Source: Arthrobacter bambusae (GTDB taxonomy: Bacteria; Actinomycetota; Actinomycetes; Actinomycetales; Micrococcaceae). From it: a DNA stretch of 64,000 nucleotides. A program made the translations under genes and the position numbers. The DNA lies in the NCBI RefSeq assembly GCF_030812595.1, contig NZ_JAUSSZ010000014.1:1-64000 (forward strand), read 5' to 3'. Shown here piece by piece: positions 10,018 through 60,764 of this stretch. The notes under the pieces were generated by a model. It did not search any database. It was not told the origin of the DNA and saw nothing but the letters and a program-made list of their open reading frames with translations. Position 1 is the first letter of the stretch. Each line of letters opens with the position of its first letter.

Positions 10018-10027
10018 CAGGCCTTTG

Positions 10028-10064
10028 GAGAACCCGGGGTTCCTTAAAGGGACCCCGGGTTCTC
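10028..10064. terminator. Bidirectional terminator between convergent genes
   Basis: The arms GAGAACCCGGGGTTCC (10028-10043) and GGGACCCCGGGTTCTC (10049-10064) pair over 16 bp with one G-U, leaving the loop TTAAA. The TAA stop of the minus-strand gene lies in this loop (complement of 10044-10046), so its last codons form one arm. It lies 10 bp past the deacetylase stop and can serve both genes. The T-run on the plus side is weak. Confidence 0.85.
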
Positions 10065-10823
10065 TTGCGTTTGATAAAGGTTCTCGATGATGGCGTCGGC
10101 CAGCGCCGGGCCCATCTTGGGGTACATCGTACGGAGTTCCTTCACGGCTGCCTCGTGTCCACGGCTAACGTGGATGACGCGCAGCCAATTGATCTGCAGC
10201 CCCGAAAGGCGCACTCCGACCTTGGAAAATTGCCGGTGCTCAATGATGAACCAAACGCTCACCGTCGCTTGGGCGAGTGCCAGCACGATGATTAGCGGCG
10301 CGAAGGCACCGGATCTGCGTAGATCGAAAAAGAACGTCGCGGTAAACAAAATCGAAAGCCACAGCGTGCCGGCTCCGAAATTCTGCCATCTGAGCCAATC
10401 AAGGAAGCGTCCCGGACGAAGTGGCGGGACCTCCGAGAGCGCCGCTTTCTCTGGAGAAGCCACTGAAATGGCCCCGGAACCCAACAACAGGCCGCCCATC
10501 CACAGGTATGGACGGGCGGGATCTGCGATCTCGGGCACGGAGAGAAACCCGGACACAAGCACCGCGATGGGCAAGATGAGGGGAAAGACATCGGCTGCCT
10601 GTGCCCGCACCAGCACCATAGGCTTGGGCCAGAGACGCCAGGTCAGCATCACCACACCCCAGATCATGGCACCGACGGCAGCGCCGAAGGAAAGAAGAAC
10701 AATCCTGACGTTCCCTGGTCCAGGCGGCGCCGTGGTGGCCAGCCACAACCAGGCACAGCCCTCCAGCACCAAGGTGGCGCCAGCGACGGTGGATACAGCT
10801 TTGGCATGCCGGATGACCCGCAT
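10044..10823 (-). CDS. Unknown multi-pass membrane protein
   Basis: A 259-residue protein with about six hydrophobic segments in the first 190 residues and a hydrophilic tail (about 195-259, with RGHEAAVKELRTMYPKMGP). I recognise no family. The frame extends upstream to 11051 inside the neighbouring gene, but ATG 10823 has a good SD (GGGGAG, 5 bp spacing) and a sensible N-terminus. Its 3' end overlaps the shared terminator hairpin. It lies 58 bp downstream of the acyltransferase on the same strand and may be co-transcribed. Confidence 0.7.
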   Translation of the reverse strand: MRVIRHAKAVSTVAGATLVLEGCAWLWLATTAPPGPGNVRIVLLSFGAAVGAMIWGVVMLTWRLWPKPMVLVRAQAADVFPLILPIAVLVSGFLSVPEIADPARPYLWMGGLLLGSGAISVASPEKAALSEVPPLRPGRFLDWLRWQNFGAGTLWLSILFTATFFFDLRRSGAFAPLIIVLALAQATVSVWFIIEHRQFSKVGVRLSGLQINWLRVIHVSRGHEAAVKELRTMYPKMGPALADAIIENLYQTQENPGSL

Positions 10824-32719: not shown

Positions 32720-33376
32720 GGCTACGCGCCCGGACCCAGGGGTTCGCCTCTCGTCAACTCTGCGCTCAAACTTCGGTTAGCGTCGCGACAAACATCGCAG
32801 AGGCCTACAAATTGATGCGGGCAGTCGGGCTGGCCATCGCCCTCCCCGCGGAGCAATGTAACTTTCATTCCGGCATCATAGTTCCCCGAGGGAGCCCGGG
32901 AAAGCACACCCAAAAATTCAGGTAGTAGTTAGGCAACCTCACTTCCGCCCCTCTCGAAAGACAAGTAGCCGGCACTCGCATCCCGCGCAGGGGCGCCGTC
33001 GTAGGCTGACGCTGGTTGTTGGCCCCGCCTCTGGGTGCACGGGGCAACGCGCCTACCAGTTAGCGAATCAAGCACTCTACAGGGGGATAGACATGCATGC
33101 GACGGTCGCCGCGTTCAAATTTCTTAGACCTATCGTGCGGAATGCCTAGGCAATCCTCGACAACTCGACGATCCGGCATTTCTAAATTCCGGCTGCGCTC
33201 AGCATAACGGTTTCTGCCGACTCGACGATCGCAGTGCATGCCGCCTGAACTGCAGGCCAACCGGGGATGAATCACCCCATTTTTATGCGCCGCGGCCTGC
33301 ACGCGCCGCCGCGCTTTTCTCTTTCGTCATCAATTTCCCAATGGCCTTGTGCCCAATTCAGGGAGGAAATACGCCC
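32720..33376. other. Long leader of the microprotein/synthase operon
   Basis: A 657-bp gene-free stretch. The repeat CTCGACGATC occurs near 33164 and near 33220. The hairpin structures at 33243-33320 are listed separately. GGGAGGA at 33361-33367 is a good SD for the small membrane protein at 33377. No coding region is supported before it. The length suggests a long 5' leader or extensive upstream control. Confidence 0.55.
33243..33318 (+). promoter_or_regulatory. Attenuator-like structures in the leader
   Basis: GGGGATGAATCACCCC (33263-33278) can form a short hairpin and is followed at once by ATTTTT, like an intrinsic terminator. GCAGGCC (33252-33258) can pair either with GCCTG (33243-33247) or with GGCCTGC (33294-33300), the latter enclosing the terminator-like hairpin. 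A further GCGC/GCGC stem with TTTTCT lies at 33303-33318. Alternative folding is an inference from base pairing only. Confidence 0.4.
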
Positions 33377-33523
33377 ATGCTCATCAATTACGTCGCCAAC
33401 GCGGAATCAGAGGCTGTTGGTCTGCTCGACTGGATTATTTTGACAGGTTTCTCTTTATCCGTAGGCGGCGCAGTGACCTACCGACTGCTGGCCGCATGGA
33501 AAGGCTGGTGGACGGACAAATGA
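33377..33523 (+). CDS. 48-residue membrane microprotein coupled to GT2
   Basis: A short protein with one membrane segment (about residues 17-40, LDWIILTGFSLSVGGAVTY) and a basic Trp-rich tail (AAWKGWWTDK). ATG 33377 follows GGGAGGA by 9 bp, and its stop overlaps the synthase ATG as ATGA, so it is very probably translated. By position it resembles small partners of processive glycan synthases such as IcaD or PgaD, though shorter and without visible similarity. A role as a synthase accessory subunit is my inference. Confidence 0.65.
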   Translation: MLINYVANAESEAVGLLDWIILTGFSLSVGGAVTYRLLAAWKGWWTDK

Positions 33524-34794
33524 GTAACATATTCGGCAGATCCGCAGTCTCGGCACTTGTAGTAGCCACACTTGGCGCCGTTTCCTGGGTGGTCCATCAC
33601 CAGACTCACGACGTGGTTCTGCTCTCCTATTGGTACCTGGGCGCCGGCGTCATCGCGGCATGCCTCATCACGTTTGTCATCGGGCGACGCTACACGAAGA
33701 ACCCGATTGCGCCCGGTCGGGTCCTGTGCATCGTACCCTCATACAACGAGGATCCGCAGGCCCTCAAAGAGACCGTCATGGCCATCCTCGCGCAGACCGT
33801 CCCTGTGGATATTGTCGTCATTGATGACGGCTCCCGGACGCCGGTGATTCCATCCGTTGATCATCCTCGCGTTACCTGGCTTCGACAGGAAAACAAAGGC
33901 AAGCGGGGCGCGCAGGTGACAGTGCTGCGGCGCTTCGATAGATCCGAGTACCAATTCATCATGACTGTGGATTCCGACTCCGCGCCTTACCCTGACGCTT
34001 GCGAGCACTTGCTCCGGGCCATGTCGAACCCCCGCATCCAAGCCGCGACGGGCATGATCTATATTCGCAACCACGGAGCCGGCTGGGTGACTCTGGCGGC
34101 GGACATTGACATCGGTACCTCATGCGTGATGATGCGGGCCTCCCGGTCCATGCTGGGTGCACTGGAAACAACATCCGGCGCCTTGGCCCTCTATCGCAGC
34201 GATCTGCTCTACGACCACCTGAATGCATATGAGGTGGAATGCGGCACTGGGGATGACCGCTGGCTGGCCCTCCGGGCGTTGCGGCGTGGCGAAGTCGTCG
34301 CCGTCGCCGAAGCCATAGTGGAGACTGACATGCCCACCACGCTCAATGGCACTTACCGGCAAAGGTTGCGCTGGGCAAGGTCCTGGTGGTGGATGCTGCC
34401 TTACGTATTCCGGCACATGACTCCCAAGAAGCTTCTGAGCCCTCTTTATGGGCTGATGCAGCTTCTCATCACCCCTGCGATTGCCCTGTACATATTGACT
34501 GAAACTGTGCTTTCGCTGGGTGGCCGTTATGCCGGTCACGGCTACGTTCTGGCAATTTACATTGGAGCGTATGTAATCGTTCGCTACGCCGGTTCTGCCC
34601 TCTACCTCATTGGACGGCCCAACTTGTCAATGCGCCAAAAGCTATTGTGCTGGTTCGTTGGAACACCGGGCGCGATAATCCTCAACGTATTTCTTCTGAC
34701 TCCAATCCGCTACATTGCGCTGGCAAAACTCTTCGATAATCGCTGGCAGACACGCGAACTCGACGCTACCGCGCTCTCTCCGCAGCAGATCTAG
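33520..34794 (+). CDS. Processive GT2 synthase (HAS/NodC/chitin-synthase-like)
   Basis: A 424-residue membrane glycosyltransferase with two N-terminal helices (about 8-50), a GT-A domain and about four C-terminal helices. Motifs in order: IVPSYNED, DDGSRT, TVDSDSAP (D-x-D), ETTSGALALYRSD, GTGDDRW, and QRLRWARSWWW (Q-x-x-R-W). The GDDR and QRLRW forms are those of hyaluronan/NodC/chitin-type synthases, which polymerise and often export beta-linked N-acetylhexosamine chains. The next gene is a deacetylase, supporting an N-acetylglucosamine-type polymer. The actual product is inferred. Confidence 0.87.
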   Translation: MSNIFGRSAVSALVVATLGAVSWVVHHQTHDVVLLSYWYLGAGVIAACLITFVIGRRYTKNPIAPGRVLCIVPSYNEDPQALKETVMAILAQTVPVDIVVIDDGSRTPVIPSVDHPRVTWLRQENKGKRGAQVTVLRRFDRSEYQFIMTVDSDSAPYPDACEHLLRAMSNPRIQAATGMIYIRNHGAGWVTLAADIDIGTSCVMMRASRSMLGALETTSGALALYRSDLLYDHLNAYEVECGTGDDRWLALRALRRGEVVAVAEAIVETDMPTTLNGTYRQRLRWARSWWWMLPYVFRHMTPKKLLSPLYGLMQLLITPAIALYILTETVLSLGGRYAGHGYVLAIYIGAYVIVRYAGSALYLIGRPNLSMRQKLLCWFVGTPGAIILNVFLLTPIRYIALAKLFDNRWQTRELDATALSPQQI

Positions 34795-34831
34795 AACGAG
34801 TCACTCCGCAGACTCAAGAGAGGGAGAACCT

Positions 34832-36421
34832 ATGTGGAAGCAGCAATCGAGTCCGGCCGGCCGTTATTCGTTAGCCCGGACTTCGGGCAACGGACGCGCG
34901 AATCGAGCCGCCCGGATCCTGACGCGGGGCGTTCTATGCGCCGCGCTTGTGGTGGTGATGTCCCCGTTTCACGCAACGGCCGCACCTCCGGTCGCTCCCC
35001 TCGCGGAGACGATAGCGCCGAACAATACCGTGGTCTCGCTGACGTTCGACGACGGATTCGCCTCCGTCGAGGCCGCCGGCACCGCCTTGGCTCGACACAA
35101 CATGCACGGCACTTTCTATATCCCGACCGGCCTCGTGGACCAGCCGGGCAGACTTACCTGGACACAAATAGACGCACTTCAGGCCGCCGGGAACGAAATC
35201 GGCGGCCACACGGTCAACCATTGGCACCTCGATAAGCTTGACCAGCCCGAACAGGCACGCCAGATCTGCGATGACCGCGTCGCCCTCGCCGCCCACGGAC
35301 TTAGAGTGACATCGTTTGCATATCCTTTCGACGGTTTCAAGGCTGAAACTGAAACGATCGTCAAGAACTGTGGATATAACAGTGCCCGGTCCGAAGGCGG
35401 CTTCGTCGGCAGCTGCGAGTCCGTATGTCCTTACGCGGAGTCCTCTCCAGCAGATGATCCGTACAAGGTCCGCACTGCGTCTCCCGTGGTTACCACCACA
35501 CGCCTTTCAGACATCGAGCAACAGATTACCGACGCTGCGACGCACGGGGGCGGATGGGTTCCGCTCGTCTTTCACGATGTCTGCGATGCCTGCTCGGATA
35601 TGGCCATCTCCCCTGCTGACTTTGAAACCCTGCTCAACTGGATTCAGTCAAAGGCTGGCAGTGGAATGGCGGTCCAAACCGTCGCACAGGTAGTTGGAGG
35701 GAACGTACAGCCGGTGGTGTCCGGACCAGTGGATACGCGTCCTCCTGGCCAACTCGTCAACTCCTCGCTTGAGGTTCCGGCTGACGACGGTACCGGTTCC
35801 GCGTCGGCAGTCGACAGCCAGTGCTGGACAAGTAGTGGGTACGGCAACAACACTGCGTCCTGGGCCCGGGTAACTACGGCGCACTCTGGAGGCTGGGCAG
35901 AGCGAGTGACCATGCCGCAGTACACTTCGGGCGATCAGAAATTGATCATTCGGGAAGACAACGGTTCATGTGCGCCCGCGGTCACCCCGGGCCAGGCATA
36001 CAAAATAAGTGCTTGGTACACGTCATCGGCGCCCACTCGGATTTTGGTCTTCTATCGGATAAGTTCCGGCGCGTGGAAGTATTGGGCTGAATCCCCTCAG
36101 TCTCCCCCGTCCTCAACGTGGCAGCAGGCGGAGTGGCAGACACCGCCCCTTCCGCCGGAAGCCACACGACTCAGCTTTGGACTACAGCTTGCGGCCGCCG
36201 GAACACTGACCACCGACGACTACGCTTTGACAGCCGTCAACGCCAACGGTGGGACGGCCGGGGAGCCCGCCGCCAGTATCCCGCTGCCATCCGATTCTGC
36301 ATTCGGTAGCTTGGCTGGCGGGGCACTACTCGCCATGCTGGTGGTCCCGACGCTAGGTTTCTTATGCTGGCGTCGCACAACGCAGAAAAGGGTCCGCTCG
36401 CTTGCCGATTTGGCGCCCTGA
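34832..36421 (+). CDS. Membrane-tethered polysaccharide deacetylase
   Basis: A 529-residue exported CE4 enzyme. It has a signal peptide (to about residue 50), a NodB domain with TFDDG (71-75), GHTVNH (125-130), FAYPFDG and LVFHDV, and a carbohydrate-binding-like domain (about 325-480, with SGDQKLI and TTDDYAL). A C-terminal membrane segment followed by WRRTTQKR ends the protein. ATG 34832 has an AGGGAG SD. It likely deacetylates the polymer made by the adjacent synthase. The first two domains are paralogous to 8035-10017; only the surface anchor differs. It overlaps the next gene by 1 bp. Confidence 0.88.
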   Translation: MWKQQSSPAGRYSLARTSGNGRANRAARILTRGVLCAALVVVMSPFHATAAPPVAPLAETIAPNNTVVSLTFDDGFASVEAAGTALARHNMHGTFYIPTGLVDQPGRLTWTQIDALQAAGNEIGGHTVNHWHLDKLDQPEQARQICDDRVALAAHGLRVTSFAYPFDGFKAETETIVKNCGYNSARSEGGFVGSCESVCPYAESSPADDPYKVRTASPVVTTTRLSDIEQQITDAATHGGGWVPLVFHDVCDACSDMAISPADFETLLNWIQSKAGSGMAVQTVAQVVGGNVQPVVSGPVDTRPPGQLVNSSLEVPADDGTGSASAVDSQCWTSSGYGNNTASWARVTTAHSGGWAERVTMPQYTSGDQKLIIREDNGSCAPAVTPGQAYKISAWYTSSAPTRILVFYRISSGAWKYWAESPQSPPSSTWQQAEWQTPPLPPEATRLSFGLQLAAAGTLTTDDYALTAVNANGGTAGEPAASIPLPSDSAFGSLAGGALLAMLVVPTLGFLCWRRTTQKRVRSLADLAP

Positions 36422-37467
36422 TGGCCCGTAGTGTCCGGCCTGTGACAAGGTCCGGTTCATTCCTGCAAGCGATTCTTACCCTCGTCCTAGGAGCGTTCCT
36501 CCTCTCGGGTTCCTCAGACCCGACCACCAATGCGGCGACTCCGAGCCGCCCGTTGGGCAGGAACCTGCGAGGGGGGTGGAATCTTGAGACCCCGGAACTT
36601 GTGGCCTCCGCGGCATCGGCCGGCGTTACAGTGGCCTTCCTCTACGGTGCAGCGCCCCAGCCAAGCAGCTCACTGGGAACGGCTTTATCGAACAGGCACA
36701 TGCGGGTGGTCAGCGGTGAGGTTTCGGATCTGGTTTCCGCCTACGAGTGCACCCGGACCCATACCGTGGCGCCCAAACCGTCCGGGGCTCCCCCAGGCGA
36801 CTATTGCGGCCCGGATCCCGGCTATACGCTTCCGAATTTACTGACCGATGTCCGGGCCCTCGTTCAACGGGATCGGAATAATCCGCTCGTGGCTGGATAC
36901 TGGGTACTCGACGACACCCCCGACTGGGACTTCGGGAGCCTGCGCACGGTACTTTCTGACATCCGTGCCCTCATCCCAACGGAGTACCCGGCGATCTGCG
37001 GATTCAGCGCCAACCTCGAACCAAACGGTGACGATTTCTGGGAACCCGGTCTGGCAGAGAACTTCACCCCCGAGGGATGCAACATGGTGGCGCCGTATGT
37101 CTATGCGGATTCACGCACACGTACCGAGTCCGCGCCATCCGCCATCGATTGGTCAATGCAGCAACTGTTGCCAAAAATGGAGGCAAGCCTGACCCAGCAT
37201 GGCTGGGACCCGTCCCGCCAACCATTGCTCGGCGTCGGGCAAGCATGGGCCGGACAAAAAGCGGATAAAGGCGCAGTCACTTACCCTCCGGGTACCGCCC
37301 AGATGGTGATCCAAGCGAAAGCATATTGCGCAGCAAGAGCCCAAGGGGTTGCTTGGTATGCGTGGACGATATCCAGCTTGAGTAACGTCGAAAGCCCCTA
37401 TAACAATGACTCACTCCGGGAGGGCGTGCGGGAATCCGTCGGCGTTTGCCCGAACGAGGGGTGGTAG
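36421..37467 (+). CDS. Secreted glycosidase-like protein, family unknown
   Basis: A 348-residue exported protein with a signal peptide (about residues 8-38). The mature part alternates strands and helices like a TIM barrel (VTVAFLYGAAPQ, AGYWVLDDTPDWDFG, MVAPYVYADSRT, QPLLGVGQAW, GVAWYAWTISS). Acidic residues in WVLDDTPDWD are candidate catalytic positions. I cannot assign a GH family. TGATG coupling to the deacetylase implies action on the same polymer, perhaps as a PgaB- or PelA-like hydrolase; that is inference. Confidence 0.62.
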   Translation: MARSVRPVTRSGSFLQAILTLVLGAFLLSGSSDPTTNAATPSRPLGRNLRGGWNLETPELVASAASAGVTVAFLYGAAPQPSSSLGTALSNRHMRVVSGEVSDLVSAYECTRTHTVAPKPSGAPPGDYCGPDPGYTLPNLLTDVRALVQRDRNNPLVAGYWVLDDTPDWDFGSLRTVLSDIRALIPTEYPAICGFSANLEPNGDDFWEPGLAENFTPEGCNMVAPYVYADSRTRTESAPSAIDWSMQQLLPKMEASLTQHGWDPSRQPLLGVGQAWAGQKADKGAVTYPPGTAQMVIQAKAYCAARAQGVAWYAWTISSLSNVESPYNNDSLREGVRESVGVCPNEGW

Positions 37468-37567: not shown

Positions 37568-38173
37568 ATGACCCTTCTCCGCAATTCTGAAACAGAGTCC
37601 GCACCGCCCCGGCGGAAGAAGCGGCTGGTGCTTCGGGGATTCGTTGTAGTCGGTGCCATGGTGATCGCCTGGGCCGTTGCCGGGATCTTCCTGTACGTGG
37701 CACCACCTGCCGAGGAACCTGTTCACGCGGACGTTCTGTTCGTGCTCGGGCCTCCCGATCGACGCATGGGCTACGCCGAGCAACTGATGCAGCAGGGGTA
37801 CGCGCCCACCCTTGCGGTCTCAAGCCCCACGGGAAAAGACGGCAGATTCACAGCGGATGTTTGCAACAGCGTCCGCCCGTACCGGGTCATCTGCTTCACG
37901 CCTGAGCCATTCACCACCCAGGGCGAAGCGCGGACGCTGAGGGATCTGTCGAACCAGTACGGCTGGAAGAGCGCGGACGTCCTGACCGCCCAGTTCCACG
38001 TGACCCGGGCGCGCGTGATCGTGGACCGCTGCTACAAAGGTGGGCTGCATATGGTCGCGGACCGGACCGGTTTACCCTTGGTCTCCTTGACCAATCCGAC
38101 GTACTCATGGGCCTATCAGTACCTCTACCAAACCGCGGCTTTCGTCAAGGTTGCTATCCACCCGGAGTGCTGA
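37568..38173 (+). CDS. DUF218/YdcF-like membrane protein
   Basis: A 201-residue protein with one N-terminal membrane segment (about 22-47) and a DUF218 domain: ADVLFVLGPPDRRMGYAEQL, then TQGEARTLRDL, and LTAQFHVTRARVI. The family (SanA, ElyC, YdcF) is linked to envelope integrity or glycan-precursor metabolism but has no firm reaction. ATG 37568 begins 100 bp after the preceding stop, so it may belong to the synthase operon. Confidence 0.8.
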   Translation: MTLLRNSETESAPPRRKKRLVLRGFVVVGAMVIAWAVAGIFLYVAPPAEEPVHADVLFVLGPPDRRMGYAEQLMQQGYAPTLAVSSPTGKDGRFTADVCNSVRPYRVICFTPEPFTTQGEARTLRDLSNQYGWKSADVLTAQFHVTRARVIVDRCYKGGLHMVADRTGLPLVSLTNPTYSWAYQYLYQTAAFVKVAIHPEC

Positions 38174-45481: not shown

Positions 45482-47299
45482 TTGGTGATCAGAGTGCACG
45501 AAGAATATGGGGAAAGGGCGACGCCATTGGCTGGCGGGGGCACCGTCCAGCGCCGCGGGCTGTTTAGATTGGGGGCGCTTGCAACCGCAGTAACGGGCGC
45601 CGCCGCAGTATCAGGCTACGGCGCGGGCCCAGCCCAAGCCGCTACGCAAACGGGCCCGGTGCCGAGTGCACTAAGTGCCACCGACCCTGCCACCATTTGC
45701 GCACCGGCCGCAACCACTGTTCCGAAATGGGTCCCTGCGACAGCCTATACGGCTGGGCAGCAGGTTATATCCCCAGCTGGGGACATCGTCTCTGCGGTGG
45801 TTTCGCACGGGTCGGGCACGACGTTCGACCCAGTCAACTGGGCCTGGTCGCCCACCTTCGCACTTGCTTTGGTCGGCGGGAAGGCTCCGGTCCGAAAAGA
45901 TGAGTTGATCATCAACGTGAGAGACTATGGCGCTCTCGGAGATGGCGTAGCTGATGACACGACAGCCATCCAGGCAGCAATCGCGGCGTCCGCTAAGCAG
46001 TTAACTTCGTCCGGCGCCGGCGCAGGACGGCCGGTATTCTTCCCCGCCGGCCGGTATAAGGTCACGAGCACAATAACAGTCCCAACTGGGACGGTTCTTG
46101 AGGGCGCCTCAGGCGGCGTTTGGAACACGAATAAGGGCGAGTCGCGCATCTTCATGTCGAACCTGAGATCAACTCTGATTGCCAACGCCGACCAGACCAA
46201 TGGCGATAGCGACATTGAGATTCGCCACCTCAAGCTCATGGGCTCGGGCGGAAACGTTCTGGATTTCAAAGCCTCGGGGGCGGGCGGCACCGACGGCGTC
46301 ACGTGCCGTCGCATCCTAATCGTCGATTGTTACATCACAAACACGGCAGGAAACGGTATCCGATTCTCAGATGTTCAGGTCTCCCAAATCCGCGGATGCT
46401 ACGTATCCGGTAACACTGGCCACTCGATCTACTTTCAGTCGTCCTATGACAACGAAATCACCGGATGCCAAATCGACACATTTCAAGGTGCAACCGGGGC
46501 CTTTGGCGGCGACGGCATCCACATGGATAACACAGGGGGTTCAGCCGGATACTCTGATTACAACATCATTCACAACAACTTCATCTTCCTCTGCACGAAC
46601 GGAATCGGCATCACAAGCGGCCGCGGAAACGTGATCACCGGAAACCGCATCAACACTTGCAATTACGGCATAATGATGCAGACATTCGGCGGAGCAACCA
46701 ACATCGAACGAAACCTCGTCACCGGTAACGCCTTTTATGATCATGGCTACAAGACAGGCGGCGTCGGCGTCCTCATCGACGGAACATCGCAGTACAACAC
46801 CGTCTCAGTAAACCAATTCAGCCGCGAAACGGGATCTGGATTCAACTATGCTGTGCAAACTGGTGCGACAGCGTCAAACAACGTCGTCAATGGCAACGCC
46901 GCAAGAAATATGGTTCAAGGCAAGTCGTTCAACGACAGCTCATCGAATACAAACACTTACATCAACAATTCTGTTGCCGAGCGGGGAATGAGAGTGTCTA
47001 CCGTTCTCACATCAGCCGGTGTTGTGGCGTTCGATGCGTCATTGACGAATTCTTTCCAGGTCACGTTACAGGCGAATGCAACTAGCAGCACCCTGACCAA
47101 CGGGCATCAGGGCCAACAGATCACCATTTGCTGGTTGCAAGACGCAACGGGTGGGCGCACCTATTCTTGGCCGACGAACTGCCGCTTCGCCGGCGGGTCC
47201 GCGCCAAGCAACACCACCGCGAATCGTCAGACGAGCGCGACGTTCATGCTCAGCGGCTCTCTATGGATGGAGATAGGTAGAGCCGTTCAAGTCGGTTAA
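45482..47299 (+). CDS. Secreted right-handed beta-helix protein, tailspike-like
   Basis: A 605-residue protein. The N-terminus has a twin-arginine-like signal (VQRRGLFRLGALAT, hydrophobic core, AQAA). The pectate-lyase-3/GH28-like start INVRDYGALGDGVADDTTAI at about 139-158 leads into parallel beta-helix rungs (NEITGCQIDTF, NVITGNRINTCNYGI, NLVTGNAFYDHG). The last 100 residues resemble phage tail C-terminal domains. Such proteins cleave or modify acidic polysaccharides. TTG 45482 opens the frame; GTG 45485 or 45494 are alternatives. Its position beside a polymerase suggests capsule trimming. Confidence 0.8.
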   Translation: MVIRVHEEYGERATPLAGGGTVQRRGLFRLGALATAVTGAAAVSGYGAGPAQAATQTGPVPSALSATDPATICAPAATTVPKWVPATAYTAGQQVISPAGDIVSAVVSHGSGTTFDPVNWAWSPTFALALVGGKAPVRKDELIINVRDYGALGDGVADDTTAIQAAIAASAKQLTSSGAGAGRPVFFPAGRYKVTSTITVPTGTVLEGASGGVWNTNKGESRIFMSNLRSTLIANADQTNGDSDIEIRHLKLMGSGGNVLDFKASGAGGTDGVTCRRILIVDCYITNTAGNGIRFSDVQVSQIRGCYVSGNTGHSIYFQSSYDNEITGCQIDTFQGATGAFGGDGIHMDNTGGSAGYSDYNIIHNNFIFLCTNGIGITSGRGNVITGNRINTCNYGIMMQTFGGATNIERNLVTGNAFYDHGYKTGGVGVLIDGTSQYNTVSVNQFSRETGSGFNYAVQTGATASNNVVNGNAARNMVQGKSFNDSSSNTNTYINNSVAERGMRVSTVLTSAGVVAFDASLTNSFQVTLQANATSSTLTNGHQGQQITICWLQDATGGRTYSWPTNCRFAGGSAPSNTTANRQTSATFMLSGSLWMEIGRAVQVG

Positions 47300-52161: not shown

Positions 52162-53658
52162 TTGGACCTACGTGACTACTTGCGAATCTTGCGCAGGCAT
52201 TGGGTTTTGATAGCGGCCGCCGCTCTCGCAGGCTTGCTTGTTGGCGGAGGCGCTTCTGTGCTGACGCCCCCCACATACACGGCCGAGACTCAGCTGTTTG
52301 TTGCCATCCAAGGTTCCGGAACAATCCAAGAGCTTCAGCAGGGCAACACCTTCAGCCAGGCACGCGTTCAGTCCTATGTAAAGACCGTGGACTCGCCAGT
52401 AGTACTTCAACCTGTTATCGACAGCCTCGGGTTGTCCAGCACGGCGGAAGAACTAGCCAAGCAAGTGACGGCCACGACAGACGCCAACACGGTTCTCATT
52501 AATGTGGCGGTCACTGACCACTCCCCGGTTCAGGCGGCTGCGATCGCAGGTGCCGTCGCGAAGAGCCTAGTGACTGCCGTTGATTCCTTGGAAAAGCCTA
52601 AGACCGGCGGAGCTTCCCCGGTCAGCTTGTCAGTTATCAAACCCGCAATCGCACCGGCCAATCCCTCATCGCCCAATACGCGCCTCAATTTGCTTCTGGG
52701 TCTACTGGTTGGACTGGCTCTGGGGGTCGGGGCTGCCGTGCTGAGGACCACCCTCGATAATCGAATCCGCGGTGAGGCAGACTTGCGGCATGTAACGGAC
52801 GCTCCGCTCTTAGGCGGAATTGCGTTCGACCTAGACGCCGAAAAGAAGCCACTTCTGACACAGACCGCCCAAAGGAGTCCCCGGGCCGAATCGTTTCGGC
52901 AGCTTCGGACAAATCTTCAGTTCGCAAACGTATCCCAGCACGCTAAGACTGTCCTAGTCACGTCATCCGTACCTGGCGAGGGAAAGAGCACCACATCAAC
53001 GAATCTAGCTATTGCACTCGCTCAAGCAGGGCAGACAGTGTGCCTGCTCGACGCCGACCTGCGTCGGCCCGCAGTAAATGACTACTTGGGTCTGGACAGA
53101 GGTGCAGGCCTCACCACCGCTTTGGTGGGACTAGCCGATGTAAATGATCTCCTTCAGCCTTGGGGTGAAGACAATCTGTTCGTGCTTACGTCCGGCCAGA
53201 TTCCGCCGAATCCGAGCGAACTCCTTGGCTCCGAAGAGATGAAGGACCTTATTGCGCGCCTTGAACGCGCGTTTGATGCCGTCATCATCGATGCACCACC
53301 GCTCCTTCCAGTTACAGATGCAGCGGTTCTGTCCCAACATGTCGGCGGAGTAGTAGTGGTCGTCGGATCTCAAAAACTCACTCGGCAGGACCTCCAGAGG
53401 TCGCTTGCTGCCCTTGACATGGTGGGCTCGAAAGTACTCGGTATCGTTCTTAACCGACTTCCGGTCAAGGGCCCGGACGCCTACGCCTACAGCTACTACG
53501 CACACGACGAGACGCCCAAGGCTAAGTCCAAGGAGGGAAAGGCGCGACCTCCAGCACCAAACGCGTCCAGACGGCCCGATCCCTTATTCGATCAGGGTCA
53601 AGAGGCAACTCCTCCAGAGGCTCGCCCGGCACGTAGTTTTCCGATGTCCCGCAGATAA
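52162..53658 (+). CDS. Wzz-type chain-length regulator/tyrosine autokinase
   Basis: A 498-residue fusion. Residues 1-195 form a Wzz/polysaccharide co-polymerase with membrane segments at about 13-35 and 175-195. Residues 235-445 form a BY-kinase with Walker A SSVPGEGKSTTS (268-279), Walker A' CLLDADLRRP and Walker B VIIDAPPLLPV. A tyrosine cluster (YAYSYYAHD) and a Pro-rich tail follow. Such proteins control chain length and assembly of exported polysaccharides by cycles of tyrosine phosphorylation. It opens the fucose cluster; the matching phosphatase is not in view. Confidence 0.92.
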   Translation: MDLRDYLRILRRHWVLIAAAALAGLLVGGGASVLTPPTYTAETQLFVAIQGSGTIQELQQGNTFSQARVQSYVKTVDSPVVLQPVIDSLGLSSTAEELAKQVTATTDANTVLINVAVTDHSPVQAAAIAGAVAKSLVTAVDSLEKPKTGGASPVSLSVIKPAIAPANPSSPNTRLNLLLGLLVGLALGVGAAVLRTTLDNRIRGEADLRHVTDAPLLGGIAFDLDAEKKPLLTQTAQRSPRAESFRQLRTNLQFANVSQHAKTVLVTSSVPGEGKSTTSTNLAIALAQAGQTVCLLDADLRRPAVNDYLGLDRGAGLTTALVGLADVNDLLQPWGEDNLFVLTSGQIPPNPSELLGSEEMKDLIARLERAFDAVIIDAPPLLPVTDAAVLSQHVGGVVVVVGSQKLTRQDLQRSLAALDMVGSKVLGIVLNRLPVKGPDAYAYSYYAHDETPKAKSKEGKARPPAPNASRRPDPLFDQGQEATPPEARPARSFPMSRR

Positions 53659-53741
53659 AACCCGCTCAGTGCTCTGACTGTACTCGGAGTACTTGCCGTT
53701 GAGGTCGGTCTTAATCTCGCGTTTGTAAAGGGTTATCACCA

Positions 53742-54539
53742 ATGCGTTCTCAAGCCTTTCAACTCCCCGCGCAGGAACTTGCAGGGGTCCCTCTGGTTCA
53801 AGCCTCCCTACGTGATGCCACCGAGGAACTCTGTCGTCTAGCAAAGGTCCAAGGCCGGCCGCGTGGATTCAGCTTCCATTTGGTCAACGCGTACACCGTT
53901 GCTCTTGCGCATCGAGATGATCGATATGCGAAGCTGTTAGCTACCTCAACGGCCAACTTTCCCGACGGCAAGCCGCTGACCTGGTGGAAACCTCGAAGCG
54001 GAAAGCGACTTCAACAAGTTCGCGGACCACGGCTCTTCGAAGAAGTCATGAACGTCGGTCGAGAATCAGACGTCAGGCATTTCTTGCTCGGCGCGACTGA
54101 GGAAACACTCTCCCAGCTGGAGGCCAGCCTTCAAGCTAGGCACCCCGGGGTCAACATCGTCGGAAGCTTCAGTCCCCCCTTTCGAACGATGACCCAGGAC
54201 GAGATCCGCCATCAGGACAAAGCAATAGCAGATTCATCGGCGGAAATTGTCTGGGTGGGCCTGGGAACTCCTAAACAGGATTGGGAAGTTGAGAGGATTG
54301 CGTCGGAATTACCAGTCCTGGCCGTTGCGGTCGGTGCTGCCTTCGACTTCTCTGCCGGAACCAAACGTAGAGCCCCTGAGTGGATTTCGAAATTGGGATT
54401 CGAATGGTTGTTCAGGCTTTTATCAGAACCTCGTCGGCTGTGGAGGCGGTATCTCATCGGAAACCTCGTGTTCCTTTGGGCGGTTGCCAGGCACCGTTCA
54501 AGAACCGATGACTCCCCTGAAGGAGTCCGCGTTGATTAG
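53742..54539 (+). CDS. WecG/TagA/CpsF-family glycosyltransferase
   Basis: A 265-residue GT26 protein with the family motifs ANFPDGKPLTWW, VRGPRLFEEVM, WVGLGTPKQDWEVE, AVGAAFDFSAGTKRRAPEW and FEWLFRLLSEPRRLWRRY. GT26 members add the second sugar, such as N-acetylmannosaminuronate or N-acetylmannosamine, to an undecaprenyl-linked first sugar. ATG 53742 has an AAAGGG SD. From here to about 60.8 kb the DNA is more A/T-rich than the rest, as is common for surface-glycan loci. Confidence 0.92.
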   Translation: MRSQAFQLPAQELAGVPLVQASLRDATEELCRLAKVQGRPRGFSFHLVNAYTVALAHRDDRYAKLLATSTANFPDGKPLTWWKPRSGKRLQQVRGPRLFEEVMNVGRESDVRHFLLGATEETLSQLEASLQARHPGVNIVGSFSPPFRTMTQDEIRHQDKAIADSSAEIVWVGLGTPKQDWEVERIASELPVLAVAVGAAFDFSAGTKRRAPEWISKLGFEWLFRLLSEPRRLWRRYLIGNLVFLWAVARHRSRTDDSPEGVRVD

Positions 54540-55077
54540 GGCGTTATCTCGGTTCGTCCTACGGAAACTGGCAGTCCGAAAAAATGTCGTGGTCGGTGAC
54601 AACTTCCATGTCGGCGTTGGAACGATTATTTGGGCGCCGCAACGCCTATCGATAGGCAACGACGTCTATGTCGGCAAGAACGCCACCATACAGGTCGACG
54701 GGATGATCGGCGACGGGGTTCTTGTCGCCAACGCTGTTGGCATCATAGGAAGAACAGACCACGAAACTCGAACCGTTGGAGTGCCAATTCGCCGTGCCGA
54801 ATGGGTAGGCGACAACCCAAAAGCCCTAAGCAAACAAACGTTAGTCGGCTCTGATGTCTGGATTGGCTATGGCGCGGTCATCCTGTCCGGGGTGACGATC
54901 GGCGACAGCGCCATCATCGCGGCCGGGTCTGTCGTCACACGTGATGTCGCGCCGAACACGGTCGTTGCAGGTTCACCCGCTACTTTCAGAAAATATCGGT
55001 TTAGCGAACCGGATTTCATGACTCATTGGGCGGAACTGAACCGACGCGGCATCCATCGTTTACTGGAAGAAGGCTGA
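54532..55077 (+). CDS. Hexapeptide-repeat O-acetyltransferase (CatB/WbbJ-like)
   Basis: A 181-residue left-handed beta-helix protein with rungs such as VVVGDNFHVGVGT, LSIGNDVYVGKNAT, and DVWIGYGAVILSGVTIGD, then the closing AGSPATFRKYRF. It probably acetylates a sugar of the repeat unit from acetyl-CoA. TTG 54532 has the best SD (AAGGAG 6 bp ahead) and overlaps the wecG-like end by 8 bp; ATG 54508 is an alternative. The acceptor is unknown. Confidence 0.83.
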   Translation: MIRALSRFVLRKLAVRKNVVVGDNFHVGVGTIIWAPQRLSIGNDVYVGKNATIQVDGMIGDGVLVANAVGIIGRTDHETRTVGVPIRRAEWVGDNPKALSKQTLVGSDVWIGYGAVILSGVTIGDSAIIAAGSVVTRDVAPNTVVAGSPATFRKYRFSEPDFMTHWAELNRRGIHRLLEEG

Positions 55078-55078
55078 C

Positions 55079-56209
55079 ATGCGCGTTGCGATCATCCACC
55101 CCTGGTTCCCTCAGTATCGCAAGCCATTTTTCGATAAGCTGCTTGAATTGGCGTCGGAGCAAGGCATCCGGATCGATATTTTCCACGGGAACCCGCCGCC
55201 GGAGTGGCAGGAACGTGGCGACTCTGTTAGTGAGCCTTACGCAACGCGAATGAATACCAAATTCTTCAACATACGCGGTAGAAGTCTTGTCTACAAGTCA
55301 CCGGTTTCGATTTGGCAAAAAGGCCCATACGACGTGGTCGTATTGGAACAGGCTGTCAGGAACCTCGAGACCTACCAGCTTCTGTTACGCCGCCAAGGAG
55401 CTCACGTGGCCTTCTGGGGCCATGGAAAGACGTACACAAAAAGCACTGGACGAGCCCAGGAATGGTTCAAACAGTTCCTGACTAGAAGAGGCGAATGGTT
55501 CTTCTCCTACACCAAAGGGGGAGAAGCTGCGGTCAGGGCCGCTGGTTTCCCCGCCAACAGAATCACAATTGTTCAGAACTCCGTAGATTCAACCGAACTA
55601 CGGAACCTGATCTCTAAAATCACTGATGTATCGAAACAAACTTTCGCAGACAAGCACGACCTTCGAGGTAAGACTGGGATCTTCATCGGCGGGCTTGACG
55701 ACTCCAAGCGTCTCGAATTTCTACTTGAAGCCGCACAGCAGGTCCACTCAAGCGATCCGGAATTCCGACTAATTATTGCAGGCAACGGTTCAAGGCGAGA
55801 CTTGGTGCAAAGTGCCGCAGATAGCAACCCATGGATTGCGTACTTGGGTTCTCTGTTCGGCGAAGAAAAAGCCCTCGCCCTGGCATCCGCGGAAGTGCTT
55901 CTCATGCCAGGCAGAGTCGGCCTCGTGGCAGTGGACAGCTTCGCCAGCACTACCCCGATAGTAACCACAGATTGGCCGCTGCACGCCCCAGAATTCGAAT
56001 ATCTCCAGCCGGGTCACAATGCCGTCGTGACTAGGGATGACATGAAGGAATACTCTACTTCGATTGTAGAGTTGCTGAATGATACTGAAGCTTTGGACGG
56101 GCTAAAGAGGGGCACCGAGGAATCTGCCGAAGTGTACTCAGTTCACAACATGGCTTCCAACTTTCTGCAGGGCTTGACGTCCCTGCGAAAACAAGTCCAC
56201 GTGAAGTAG
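55079..56209 (+). CDS. Glycosyltransferase family 4
   Basis: A 376-residue GT-B enzyme. The N-terminus reads IIHPWFPQYRKPFFDKL. The donor half has IFIGGLDDSKRLEFLLEA, LIIAGNGSRRD, and MPGRVGLVAVDSFASTTPIV, in which the usual E-x7-E is altered to G-x-x-A-V-D-S. It begins 2 bp after the acetyltransferase stop. It should add one sugar to the lipid-linked repeat unit; the sugar is not predictable. Confidence 0.87.
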   Translation: MRVAIIHPWFPQYRKPFFDKLLELASEQGIRIDIFHGNPPPEWQERGDSVSEPYATRMNTKFFNIRGRSLVYKSPVSIWQKGPYDVVVLEQAVRNLETYQLLLRRQGAHVAFWGHGKTYTKSTGRAQEWFKQFLTRRGEWFFSYTKGGEAAVRAAGFPANRITIVQNSVDSTELRNLISKITDVSKQTFADKHDLRGKTGIFIGGLDDSKRLEFLLEAAQQVHSSDPEFRLIIAGNGSRRDLVQSAADSNPWIAYLGSLFGEEKALALASAEVLLMPGRVGLVAVDSFASTTPIVTTDWPLHAPEFEYLQPGHNAVVTRDDMKEYSTSIVELLNDTEALDGLKRGTEESAEVYSVHNMASNFLQGLTSLRKQVHVK

Positions 56210-56220
56210 TCAGCTCTCCA

Positions 56221-57168
56221 TTAGCCGGCTGCTCCGATTTTCCGGGAAAGATACCCTCGGATTTCGAGTACATACCCAGCAGCGGTCGCCAAATGCGCGT
56301 TGGCCCGTACAGCATCTGAGGGGCTTCGATGTATAGCTGCGCGAACTCGCAACAATAGTGCACGTGCCACCAAACCTACGAAGGAGACGGCCAAGCTCGC
56401 AGACCCCGAATGGCCGTCCAGGACCAATCTAGCCCAGACGCGACCAGCGGCTTTTCGCCTGTCCATTACCCAGCGAATTTCAAGACGGTCGGCGGTGACT
56501 GCTTCCCACGCCCATGCGCCCAGGACGTGAACGATCTTATAGCCCTCCGCAGTCAAGGCCGATGTCACCGCAGTGTCCTCACCCGGACCGTTCAGGAAGG
56601 GCCGGGGAACCTTGCATACCGAGTTTTGGAGGGCAGATGGAGAAATAAGGATATTTCCAAAACCGGCGTGACGCCGTACTGCCCCGTCAGCATACTCTGG
56701 CCTGGACCACGCCCAAGCTCCTTCGGCCCAATTAGGATATTCATCAGGAAGACGTGGACGCACCGGGCCAACGAAAACATCACCTTGCCAAAGGTCTGGC
56801 GCCGCCAGAAATTCTTGAAGCCATGCAGGGCCGGGCATCTGATCATCGTCGAAAAAGATGAGCCATTCGCCCTCAGTCACCGACGAAAATGCGAGATTCC
56901 TCGCATGGCCTACGCCAGGGTTAGGTTCATGACAATAAGTGAATAGATCTTTATCGACAGCGCTTCTACGGAGGTCTAGACAGGAGCTTGCCGAGCCTTC
57001 TGGATCATTGTCAATAACAAGAATTCTAACGACAAATCCAGGCGAAAGTTCTTTGACCTGTCGGTATATCTCATCGAGCAACCTTGGAAGTAAGCCCTCG
57101 CGCTTATATGTGCAAATGGCTATAACTGCGGCCCGTCGCACACCTTCCGGAAATCGCGAACGGATCAC
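56221..57168 (-). CDS. Glycosyltransferase family 2
   Basis: A 315-residue GT-A enzyme with AICTYKREGLLPRLL at the start, FFDDDQMPGPAWL (D-x-D in DDD) and NGPGEDTAVTSAL. GTG 57168 overlaps the fucosyltransferase stop as GTGA, so I use it although the frame extends to 57285. It is the last gene of the minus-strand unit 60260-56221 and converges on the GT4 gene. Confidence 0.85.
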   Translation of the reverse strand: MIRSRFPEGVRRAAVIAICTYKREGLLPRLLDEIYRQVKELSPGFVVRILVIDNDPEGSASSCLDLRRSAVDKDLFTYCHEPNPGVGHARNLAFSSVTEGEWLIFFDDDQMPGPAWLQEFLAAPDLWQGDVFVGPVRPRLPDEYPNWAEGAWAWSRPEYADGAVRRHAGFGNILISPSALQNSVCKVPRPFLNGPGEDTAVTSALTAEGYKIVHVLGAWAWEAVTADRLEIRWVMDRRKAAGRVWARLVLDGHSGSASLAVSFVGLVARALLLRVRAAIHRSPSDAVRANAHLATAAGYVLEIRGYLSRKIGAAG

Positions 57169-57986
57169 ATTGACGCCCAGGTGTCCGGGACCAGCCGAGA
57201 TGAGTCCAGTGTGGGCTCCGCAAACCACGCGGATGGCGCTATCACGTCGCCACCGGACATCGACACCAGAAATGCGGCCCACCAACTAAATGAGCTATTG
57301 GCGGTAATCAGAGCGGCAGACGTGGACATGCGTACGAAATCCTCCGAATCGCGCGTATGGGCAATTCGAATATTCGCCCCTAGTGGCAAAACGTTCTCTG
57401 TCGCCCAGCGTCTATCATCAGAGTAGACGACGAAATTTGTGTATCCATTTTGTTCCATACGCTTTATCGCGCGTTTATAGTAGCTTAACGGTAGGGCTCC
57501 CATCACTGCCGCCGCTTTCGGATCTGAGACGTAGTCACCTCGCCTCACATGGATTGCACAAGTTTCACCCGGCGGCTCATCGGCTCGTCCAACCCACTGC
57601 TCGATATCTCGGAAAACACTGTCTTTTGCTTCAAAAAAATAGTCCATTGATTGCCAGTATCCCCAATGCAAGTTAACCAACCGCGGCGAAGCATCGATTC
57701 TTCTAGGCGGCAACTCCTGCTCTTCAATCCGCACAAATCCATTCTTGCGAAGGAATGACATCGAATCAGATGCCCCTACTTTGCGCCAAAAGAAACTCGG
57801 CAGCGAAACGAGCTTCGAGTTCGGAATCAGGCCGCGCAATGCGAATCCTCGTCCAAGCTGGTTTCCTCGATCGTAAAGGACAAGATGACCTTCGCGATTC
57901 AACCTCTGCCCGTACGCCCAAGCAAAAAGCTGATTTCCAAATCCACCACGCAAAGCCACGACGCTTACAGGGCGAAGGAAAGACAT
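57165..57986 (-). CDS. GT11 alpha-1,2-fucosyltransferase-like
   Basis: A 273-residue enzyme with the GT11 signatures GGFGNQLFAWAYG at the N-terminus, IHVRRGDYV in the GDP-fucose site, and ITANSSFSWWAA near the C-terminus. GT11 enzymes transfer L-fucose from GDP-fucose in alpha-1,2 linkage. The gmd and fcl genes a few kilobases away make the donor, which supports a fucose-bearing polymer. Its ATG overlaps the flippase stop by 1 bp (TAATG). Confidence 0.9.
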   Translation of the reverse strand: MSFLRPVSVVALRGGFGNQLFAWAYGQRLNREGHLVLYDRGNQLGRGFALRGLIPNSKLVSLPSFFWRKVGASDSMSFLRKNGFVRIEEQELPPRRIDASPRLVNLHWGYWQSMDYFFEAKDSVFRDIEQWVGRADEPPGETCAIHVRRGDYVSDPKAAAVMGALPLSYYKRAIKRMEQNGYTNFVVYSDDRRWATENVLPLGANIRIAHTRDSEDFVRMSTSAALITANSSFSWWAAFLVSMSGGDVIAPSAWFAEPTLDSSRLVPDTWASM

Positions 57987-59452
57987 TAGGCCACTTCTCT
58001 CAAGTTCGACTGTAATTTCTTATAGACAACCATATAAATACCGATTAGCCCTGCTGAGAAGATAGCGCCCGGACTGACGACCCCCAAGATCGCATAACTT
58101 AAGAGCGGTAGACCCGAAACTATAATTGAGATGCAAACACTCAATATCACTGCAGGTTTTTCGACAATGATACTGGATCTCTTCAGAGCAAGAAGTGTCG
58201 CGGCGAGCGTGACTACGCTCGCCGAGACCAATCCGGCGACAATCGCGAAGACACCCACCGTCGAGGCGAACACAAGTGCCACGGCTGCTTGGACGCTAAC
58301 CGTTAGCAGGCCTACGACCAGCCAGGTTCTTCTTTGGCCAAGGGGCAAGAAGCACGAACCCGCTATCCACGCCAACGCACGAAGAGGTTCGCCAGCAAAC
58401 GCGAACACGATCAGTGCAGTTGACGAATGAACCAGGGTCGGTACAAAAAGGATGCTGACTGCGAAGGGCGAGAGTGCAATTACAAGCGAGATAATCAATC
58501 CAAAGAACGGGAGGATCCTCTTCGCGATCTCTGTGATCCTTTCGCCTATCAAGCCTCTATTGTCGATACTTGCAAGTTCCACAAGGGACGATGTAGCAAC
58601 GGCTCCGAGGATCAAACTCATCGAGGTCGTCACGAGGAGAGCAACGGGCTGATACGGCGCGAGCTCGATCAACCCACGAAAATGGACGACAGTCGATCTT
58701 GAAGCCAACTCCGCGCCGGCAGCAAGCGCCCCCAGAACCAGGCTGGCTGATGCGAGGACAATGACCTCCTTGCGCCGGATTTTGTCCAGGCGTGGAAAGG
58801 CCAAGAACCCACGCCGCGCCGTCCGGCAGATGAAAACAATCACAAGAAGCTGAACTCCGGGACCGCAAACCAGACTTAGAGCGGCTAGGGAACTATCCCC
58901 TGTGGCCATCAGTGCGGCAACTACAGCTCCGCCAACGAGAGCTGCGGTTAGAGCCGAAGCAACCAGTCTGCTAGTTTCTCGGCCTGCCTGAGCGGCAGCC
59001 AGGACTATCTGACCTGCCACAGCAAGCGGAATGCCAGCTGCTGCAAAAATAGATTCCAATCCATACGCACTGCTGCCGAGGACAATCTGTGAAACCCCGG
59101 CATTGAGCGCTGTAATAACCACGACGAGCCCGAGCGAGAATGCAGCAGGCACCCACAGCAACCAACTCTGGGCCTGATCACGGGCCTTTCCGCTCAAGTC
59201 ATTTCGTGCGAGAATCACTCTCGTCGCGGTAGCAAGTCCCGCGCCTCCGAGGGTGATCAGAAGCGTCTGCATTTGAGATAGCTGGCCAAACAGAGCTATG
59301 CCGTGGGCGCCCATTGTCATTCCGGCGACTTTGGTTCGAATGAGGCCTGGGACCATGAACCCAATGGACGCCATCGTCAGAAGGACGCTCGAAGTGAAAA
59401 CCTTTCGTCCTGCCGAAGTTACGTCAATAGAGCTAACCATGGTGGTCGTCAC
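57986..59452 (-). CDS. Wzx-like polysaccharide flippase
   Basis: A 488-residue protein with about 12-14 hydrophobic segments and little loop sequence. RTKVAGMTMGAHGIALFGQ in the first helices and FAFAGEPLRALAWIAGSCFLP later resemble the MATE/MOP-type WzxE group. It would flip undecaprenyl-linked repeat units to the outer face. Its start overlaps the GT2 gene end by 20 bp, and its stop is coupled to the fucosyltransferase. Confidence 0.85.
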   Translation of the reverse strand: MTTTMVSSIDVTSAGRKVFTSSVLLTMASIGFMVPGLIRTKVAGMTMGAHGIALFGQLSQMQTLLITLGGAGLATATRVILARNDLSGKARDQAQSWLLWVPAAFSLGLVVVITALNAGVSQIVLGSSAYGLESIFAAAGIPLAVAGQIVLAAAQAGRETSRLVASALTAALVGGAVVAALMATGDSSLAALSLVCGPGVQLLVIVFICRTARRGFLAFPRLDKIRRKEVIVLASASLVLGALAAGAELASRSTVVHFRGLIELAPYQPVALLVTTSMSLILGAVATSSLVELASIDNRGLIGERITEIAKRILPFFGLIISLVIALSPFAVSILFVPTLVHSSTALIVFAFAGEPLRALAWIAGSCFLPLGQRRTWLVVGLLTVSVQAAVALVFASTVGVFAIVAGLVSASVVTLAATLLALKRSSIIVEKPAVILSVCISIIVSGLPLLSYAILGVVSPGAIFSAGLIGIYMVVYKKLQSNLREVA

Positions 59453-60260: not shown

Positions 60261-60764
60261 CTTATGGATTACGGATCAATAGACACTGATCATTTGAATT
60301 CGAGTGACTTTCGCGCCCGTAGCTTGCAACTGGATACGAGATCTTGCGTCAATCGTCCTAAATCCGACCCTGTCGCGGTCCACGCTGTGATGGTGCCAGA
60401 CCTAGGCAAATTTCCCCCAAAGTTTCCTAAACTGCCGACTATAACGCTGGAGACTGGTAGACGTGCTCGTCCCTATCGCACAGCGTGAACAAATCGGCTG
60501 TAGCTATAGACCCACACAGCTCATTGCTTCGTGCACGTCGGATACGAGCTGAAGACACCCCCAAGACGCCGATCTCCATTCCCTGAACCGCTGGCCGCAG
60601 TGATGACTGACTTCGTAAGTGTGACACACACGGGATACCGTTACGACCGGCTTTTGGTGCCGGGGGTCCTCCCTTATGATGAACTCGCATCTACAGGTCT
60701 AGTGCCTGCGCATTCGTTGCTGGTGTTGCTCACGGCTACATCACTTCTCTTACTGGGGGCCCTC
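60261..60764. other. Divergent intergenic region before gmd
   Basis: A 504-bp gap between the leftward GT2 unit and the rightward gmd unit, presumably holding both promoters. The gmd frame is open back to about 60531, but that part encodes no Rossmann start and has poor codon use, so I treat it as untranslated. GGGGG at 60755-60759 is the SD for TTG 60765. Confidence 0.5.

What the first reader, a model, noticed from the sequence alone, without database searches (positions are those of the whole stretch)
33243..37467. Microprotein + HAS/NodC-like synthase + deacetylase + secreted hydrolase-like operon
Four genes are linked by overlaps or short gaps: a 48-residue one-helix microprotein (ATGA overlap), a processive GT2 with D-x-D, GDDR and QRLRW motifs, a membrane-tethered NodB-type deacetylase, and an unassigned TIM-barrel-like secreted protein (TGATG overlap). 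Together they look like a self-contained system to make, deacetylate and trim an N-acetylhexosamine polymer, comparable to Pga/Ica but with a microprotein where PgaD/IcaD would be. I do not recognise the microprotein or the hydrolase.
Basis: partly seen in the sequence, partly recalled or inferred. Interest (0 to 1): 0.8.

Follow-up and report, generated by a model that had tools for sequence, protein, structure and literature searches.

The report
Tiny partner of a sugar-polymer synthase
A 48-residue membrane protein really is encoded just ahead of a hyaluronan-synthase-like enzyme, and relatives of the pair sit side by side in scattered actinobacteria, so it is probably an unnamed small subunit of a polymer-making machine whose product is still unknown.

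Summary
The 48-codon frame (33377-33523, ATGA overlap with the GT2) is a conserved gene: a profile built without the window and its nearest relative ranks it first of 1352 window segments (E 9.4e-7, next 1.7). Streptomyces homologues show purifying selection (pN/pS 0.13; GT2 0.10). In 96 Streptomyces genomes the only two strong hits are in the two genomes where a separate search found the GT2, directly upstream of it. A short ORF lies just ahead of the GT2 in all 24 related loci examined, but homology is not shown in three lineages.

The synthase model matches hyaluronan synthases best (Z 29.8); PgaC and NodC models stay far below cut-off. 21 of 24 related loci hold a nucleotide-sugar dehydrogenase beside the pair. 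The window lacks it, but its genome has a 73%-identical copy elsewhere, so the operon is not self-contained. The 'hydrolase' has no relative in any genome searched.

Best reading: a rare actinobacterial HAS-like synthase with a new one-helix accessory subunit, probably making an acidic, partly deacetylated HexNAc polymer. Product and subunit action are inferred.

The parts
33360..33367 (+). Shine-Dalgarno-like AGGGAGGA, 9 nt before the microprotein ATG
   Evidence: read; motif recalled
33377..33523 (+). 48-residue one-helix microprotein, proposed accessory subunit of the synthase
   Evidence: no Pfam or NCBIfam family at E up to 10
33520..34794 (+). processive GT2 synthase, hyaluronan-synthase-like fold, ATGA overlap with the microprotein
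   Evidence: PF13641 84.9 bits over cut-off 27; alignment; model pLDDT 81.9; Cv-HAS Z 29.8
34832..36421 (+). CE4 polysaccharide deacetylase with C-terminal hydrophobic segment
   Evidence: PF01522 68.8 bits over cut-off 23.1; relatives after the GT2 in L027-L031
36421..37467 (+). orphan protein with a signal-peptide-like N-terminus, TGATG overlap; possible trimming or binding protein, unassigned
   Evidence: no Pfam hit at E up to 10, no NCBIfam hit at E up to 1, one PDB sequence hit at E 0.69 to a designed coiled coil; model too poor; no relatives
37568..38173 (+). DUF218-like membrane protein 100 nt downstream; link to the system doubtful
   Evidence: PF02698 26.3 bits, just under cut-off 27.6; no match in the 26 related loci at E 0.001

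Best explanation
The locus belongs to a rare, patchily distributed actinobacterial cassette built on a hyaluronan-synthase-like GT2 that polymerises UDP-activated N-acetylhexosamine, probably together with a HexNAc-uronate made by a nucleotide-sugar dehydrogenase, and extrudes the chain. The microprotein is a dedicated one-helix accessory subunit: translated just before the synthase through overlapping codons, inserted N-out/C-in, and packed against the synthase's membrane helices to stabilise or activate it, as PgaD and IcaD do for PgaC and IcaA. The CE4 enzyme deacetylates the polymer outside the cell; the orphan secreted protein may trim or bind it. Shown by computation: gene reality, conservation, co-occurrence, HAS-like fold of the model, dehydrogenase linkage. 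Inferred: subunit role, topology, polymer chemistry, the orphan's role.
For: Held-out profile finds the window frame first of 1352 segments, E 9.4e-7, and ranks the frame first in 7 other loci. Purifying selection on amino acids. A short ORF ends near or overlaps the GT2 start in 24 of 24 related loci. K+R richer after than before the helix in 14 of 15 members. Strong microprotein hits in 2 of 96 Streptomyces genomes, the two where the GT2 was found among 150 searched. Model fold: Cv-HAS Z 29.8, rmsd 3.0, 359 residues. Dehydrogenase beside the pair in 21 of 24 loci, ranked nearer to HexNAc than to UDP-glucose enzymes in the five examined. PgaC activity depends on the small membrane protein PgaD (PMC8461298, passages); the authors of MatAB suggest an IcaD-like help for MatA (PMC5972031, passages).
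Against: No complex could be modelled and no function tested. Homology of the upstream ORF is not shown in L029 (rank 3, E 0.44), L030 (rank 4, E 2) and L055 (not in the top four). K+R in L030 runs the other way. The dehydrogenase is missing beside L029, L030, L055 and the window; only the general family TIGR03026 is over cut-off. An archaeal mannosyltransferase (Z 26.9) scores as high as the weaker HAS entries. The fourth ORF has no relatives.
Confidence: 0.6

Rival explanations
1. The short frame is a leader peptide that only couples or regulates translation of the GT2; its amino acids do not matter.
For: ATGA overlaps in the window and L055, GTGA possible in L049, TTGA possible in Streptomyces; short length.
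Against: Amino-acid-level purifying selection: pN/pS 0.135, variable columns 11/11/40 by codon position; recognisable protein profile across lineages; hydrophobic segment kept.
Confidence: 0.08
2. The microprotein is a minimal sortase substrate (LAXTG-type) that tethers something, perhaps the polymer, to the wall rather than a synthase subunit.
For: The 16 Streptomyces copies carry LAATG before the helix and a basic tail; L038 matches NF058583 'LAXTG motif-containing small protein' at 25.5 bits, and 7 of 15 members match it at E up to 10, best 1.5e-6.
Against: 25.5 is under the cut-off of 65; no LAXTG in the window, L027, L028, L029, L030, L031, L046 or L049 copies; no signal peptide seen; in 20 loci picked for LAXTG-like hits the best score to the microprotein profile was 8 bits apart from one true member.
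Confidence: 0.08
3. It is essentially a hyaluronan-like or chitin-like synthase operon of known chemistry (UDP-GlcNAc with or without UDP-GlcA), the microprotein being a minor accessory.
For: HAS-like fold; GDDR and QRLRW motifs; best NCBIfam model is NodC, 126.2 bits.
Against: NodC cut-off is 550; the dehydrogenases examined score higher against UDP-HexNAc than UDP-glucose dehydrogenases; only 19% identity to Cv-HAS.
Confidence: 0.2

Closest known systems
Class I hyaluronan synthases (Cv-HAS 8snc, Xenopus HAS1 8smm)
   Same: Best structural match of the GT2 model (Z 29.8 and 27.1, about 357-359 residues); a sugar dehydrogenase gene beside most relatives, as hasB is beside hasA (hasAB recalled)
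   Different: 17-19% identity; the alignment stops at HAS residue 452 with at least 42 modelled HAS residues beyond it; dehydrogenase is nearer HexNAc types; a microprotein and often a CE4 are present
PgaC-PgaD / IcaA-IcaD PNAG synthases
   Same: GT2 with a small membrane partner and a CE4 deacetylase in one operon
   Different: TIGR03937 73.2 bits against 422.3; partner is single-helix, upstream, and matches no PgaD or IcaD model; PgaD/IcaD having two helices and lying downstream is recalled
Streptomyces MatA-MatB (PNAG)
   Same: Actinobacterial GT2 plus CE4 with an upstream membrane protein of unclear role (PMC4391728 and PMC5972031, passages)
   Different: MatB fuses GT2 and CE4 in one protein; here they are separate genes
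NodC/NodB chitooligosaccharide enzymes
   Same: NodC is the best NCBIfam model of the GT2 (126.2 bits) and a CE4 follows
   Different: Cut-offs 550 and 240 are far from met (CE4 to NodB 19.3 bits)
NF058583 LAXTG_small_WW
   Same: About 54 positions, helix plus basic tail
   Different: Streptomyces L038 copy 25.5 bits against cut-off 65; the window copy gives no match

Membership tests
PNAG synthase (Pga/Ica) | GT2 over the PgaC/IcaA equivalog cut-off | tested here: not met
   TIGR03937 73.2 bits against 422.3
PNAG synthase (Pga/Ica) | PgaD- or IcaD-type small partner | tested here: not met
   no Pfam or NCBIfam match of the window copy at E up to 10; one predicted helix, gene upstream of the GT2
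PNAG synthase (Pga/Ica) | poly-beta-1,6-GlcNAc product | not testable with these tools
   needs glycan analysis
Class I hyaluronan synthase | HAS-type membrane-integrated GT2 fold | tested here: met
   model against Cv-HAS Z 29.8, rmsd 3.0, 359 aligned; a shared fold shows no function
Class I hyaluronan synthase | UDP-glucose dehydrogenase partner | tested here: inconclusive
   dehydrogenase beside 21 of 24 relatives, ranked nearer UDP-HexNAc enzymes, no equivalog over cut-off
Class I hyaluronan synthase | makes hyaluronan | not testable with these tools
   needs enzymology
NodC chitooligosaccharide synthase | over the TIGR04242 cut-off | tested here: not met
   126.2 against 550
CE4 polysaccharide deacetylase | PF01522 over cut-off with catalytic motifs | tested here: met
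   68.8 against 23.1; TFDDG, HTVNH, FAYPF by eye (motif names recalled)
LAXTG small protein NF058583 | over curated cut-off | tested here: not met
   L038 copy 25.5 against 65; window copy no match
Glycoside hydrolase (fourth ORF) | match to a known hydrolase family or fold | tested here: inconclusive
   no family match; model pLDDT 39 and no Foldseek match at E 0.001 or better

The most novel reading that the evidence does not exclude
An undescribed bacterial glycosaminoglycan-like system: a HAS-type synthase completed by a new family of one-helix subunits, fed HexNAc and HexNAc-uronate, with its product deacetylated outside the cell. The subunit may share ancestry with the C-terminal membrane tail of the deacetylase, which in a sister clade (L052, L053) overlaps the GT2 start.
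Probability: 0.3. Interest if true: 0.75.

Novelty: new variant of a known kind. Interest (0 to 1): 0.55.

Why it matters
Why some processive synthases need a tiny membrane partner is unresolved: a 2021 review says the PgaC-PgaD complex and how it is activated still have to be worked out (PMC8461298, passages). A 48-57-residue single-helix partner of a HAS-like enzyme, a fold with many solved structures, would be a very simple case in which to test it. The cassette occurs in cultured Streptomyces, where one plasmid record names the small gene only 'hypothetical protein'. If the inferred chemistry is right, the product would be an acidic, partly deacetylated HexNAc polymer that I know of in no described system (recall, not a search).

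Tried and rejected
Relatives of the fourth ORF (P0004): none at the set limits in 394 other genomes of the family (E 1e-5), 324 others of the class (E 1e-4; overlaps), 26 genomes reached through related loci, plasmids or viral contigs. itself warns that without a positive control an empty answer shows nothing. Its single-sequence model is too poor to use.

Plain sequence search for the microprotein in relatives: no hit with E below 0.05 outside the own genome. It was no evidence against conservation, since the GT2 is itself rare in the order.

NF058583 as the family: rejected. At E up to 0.01 it matches in 53 of 101 Streptomyces genomes, mostly inside larger open frames, none over cut-off.

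Descent of the microprotein from the deacetylase tail: the likeness in L052/L053 was seen by eye, but the profile gives 4.1 bits in L053 (first of 201, E 0.22) and nothing at that place in L052. Speculation only.

A two-helix form in L030 and L055: both frames run on upstream with a second hydrophobic stretch, but start codons are unsettled and codon bias in L055 is weak.

Window-L027 pair alone: pN/pS 0.35 over the 32 codons from the helix on, and a weakly constrained N-terminal part; too short to carry the case alone.

Promoter and terminator scan: no more sites than in shuffles. Literature searches: none of the listings shows a paper on this pair; one search failed. The library lacks most subscription journals. 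Of papers I saw only passages of PMC4391728, PMC5972031 and PMC8461298, otherwise listings.

Rows left out: alignment A1 holds 7 of 16 Streptomyces microproteins, A2 8 of 16 Streptomyces GT2s; the GT2 pN/pS used 14 of 16 (L041, L045 left out) and 1200 nt of each; the profiles drew on 9 of 16 Streptomyces copies (none when Streptomyces itself was held out), also used the unproven L029, L030 and L055 frames when these were not the ones held out, and tested 2 of the 9; the profile left out L029, L030, L055. Hydropathy was computed for 15 microproteins, not for every locus. Searches were read one base out of frame and replaced; the L028 dehydrogenase was given in a wrong frame (0 families) and was found by tblastn. 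A script error was mended.
Full report
What is there. The microprotein reads MLINYVANAESEAVGLLDWIILTGFSLSVGGAVTYRLLAAWKGWWTDK: no K or R before its hydrophobic stretch, three after it. A Shine-Dalgarno-like AGGGAGGA precedes it, and its stop overlaps the GT2 start as ATGA. The three larger genes have third-position GC of 0.67-0.68; the genes called within about 7 kb on either side mostly have 0.74-0.84, with one at 0.66, as one would expect of acquired DNA.

Is the microprotein real? A plain search finds nothing convincing in 58 relatives, but the GT2 itself is rare: at E up to 1e-60 in 4 of 297 genomes of the order, own included, and at E up to 1e-90 in 2 of 396 of the phylum, own included. 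A scan of genome contigs gave 23 loci with the GT2 at 53-82% identity: a Micrococcaceae MAG, five other actinobacterial MAGs including one Nocardiopsis, Nocardioides caldifontis and 16 Streptomyces. G704 adds one, making 24. In each a short ORF ends close to, or overlaps, the GT2 start; the GT2 start codon is uncertain in several, as in L031, L046 and Streptomyces. The 16 Streptomyces copies are 57 aa; their pN/pS is 0.135, against 0.100 for the GT2 (14 loci) and 3.75 and 2.67 for the other two frames of the same DNA; variable columns by codon position are 11, 11 and 40 of 57.

Homology across lineages was tested by holding lineages out. With the window and L027 held out, the profile ranks the window frame first of 1352 stop-to-stop segments, E 9.4e-7, the next at 1.7. 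L027, L028, L031, L046, L049, L038 and L045 were also ranked first, E 1.5e-4 or better. L029 (rank 3, E 0.44), L030 (rank 4, E 2) and L055 (not in the top four) were not recovered: there only position and hydrophobicity speak for the family.

Co-occurrence. A profile search of 96 Streptomyces genomes gave 83.1 and 81.1 bits in G1124 and G1101; 16 other genomes gave at most 23.4 bits, inside larger open frames. A separate search of 150 Streptomyces genomes found the GT2 in two, G1101 and G1124, about 30-40 nt downstream of the microprotein. The lists do not show that all 96 were among the 150, and the profile contains Streptomyces copies. In 20 Streptomyces loci picked for LAXTG-like hits, one true member scored 85.7 bits (L071, the G1101 copy) and the best other 8.

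The synthase. The model (17 sequences, mean pLDDT 81.9) has two N-terminal helices, a GT domain and three long C-terminal helices. Hyaluronan synthases lead the structure comparison (Cv-HAS Z 29.8, rmsd 3.0, 359 residues, 19% identity; Xenopus HAS1 Z 27.1), ahead of chitin (22.7) and cellulose (22.3) synthases; an archaeal mannosyltransferase (26.9) ties with the weaker HAS entries. NodC and PgaC models match far below their cut-offs. The alignment to Cv-HAS spans residues 38-452 of a chain with 494 modelled residues, so at least 42 lie beyond it; a helix from the microprotein could stand in for something missing there, but that is inference.

The cassette. tblastn (E 1e-6) finds a nucleotide-sugar dehydrogenase beside the pair in 21 of 24 loci (16 Streptomyces, L027, L028, L031, L046, L049; not L029, L030, L055). 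Five were classified, four by NCBIfam and two by PDB sequences (L038 in both): all rank nearer to UDP-HexNAc than to UDP-glucose dehydrogenases, though only the general TIGR03026 is over cut-off. The window lacks the gene, but the same genome has a 73%-identical copy of the L027 enzyme on contig C5, near an epimerase and a second CE4-GT2 pair. Two weaker dehydrogenases (30-32% identity) also exist, one 290 bases beyond the window's right end. A CE4 accompanies the pair in 5 of 24 loci (L027-L031), a GH26-like protein in 4 (L028, L029, L046, L049; Pfam-confirmed in three). In the window the unrelated P0004 takes that place after the deacetylase, which suggests, but does not show, an analogous role.

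A sister clade (L052, L053; GT2 39% identical) has the order dehydrogenase-CE4-GT2, the CE4 ending in a hydrophobic segment with a basic tail that overlaps the GT2 start. Its likeness to the microprotein is not significant.

Comparison with the known. A small membrane partner for a GT2 is known from PgaD (PMC8461298, passages) and IcaD, and an IcaD-like help was suggested for MatA (PMC5972031, passages; PMC4391728, passages, calls MatA a membrane protein and notes the lack of an IcaD-like component). What differs here is the synthase type, the single helix, the upstream place and the lack of any family assignment. I rate gene reality about 0.95, a subunit role about 0.65 and a HexNAc-uronate in the product about 0.5 (my judgement).

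Noticed in passing
L081 (own genome contig C5, 115500-134500), locus 2134-10122: A second exopolysaccharide locus: dehydrogenase, epimerase, CE4 overlapping a different GT2, and a GH18-like protein whose Pfam score (21.3) is under cut-off 29.6.
   Followed up: partly
window 8005-10017: A CE4 deacetylase with three S-layer-homology stretches; 48% identical over 456 aa to the CE4 of contig C5.
   Followed up: partly
window 52162-62767: A further polysaccharide cluster: Wzz-like protein with a P-loop ATPase domain, WecG/TagA-type transferase and a group 1 glycosyltransferase by Pfam; a possible flippase at 57986-59452 has no Pfam hit.
   Followed up: partly
window 45482-47299: Right-handed beta-helix, pectate-lyase-like protein with a weak match to the phage endosialidase N-terminal extension.
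   Followed up: no
L030 5546-7943: A GGDEF diguanylate cyclase lies directly upstream of the microprotein-like ORF, of interest because PgaCD is activated by c-di-GMP (PMC8461298, passages).
   Followed up: no
L030 7680-7943 and L055 8960-9223: The ORF before the GT2 runs on upstream with a second hydrophobic stretch, perhaps a two-helix form of the partner.
   Followed up: partly
Streptomyces microproteins, e.g. L038 7750-7920: All 16 carry LAATG before the helix and a basic tail, like a sortase signal, but the other lineages do not.
   Followed up: partly
L080 6445-9242 (S. coeruleorubidus plasmid NZ_CP137525.1): The dehydrogenase-microprotein-GT2 trio sits on a linear plasmid; a second Streptomyces plasmid record also matches the GT2, which fits the patchy spread.
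   Followed up: partly
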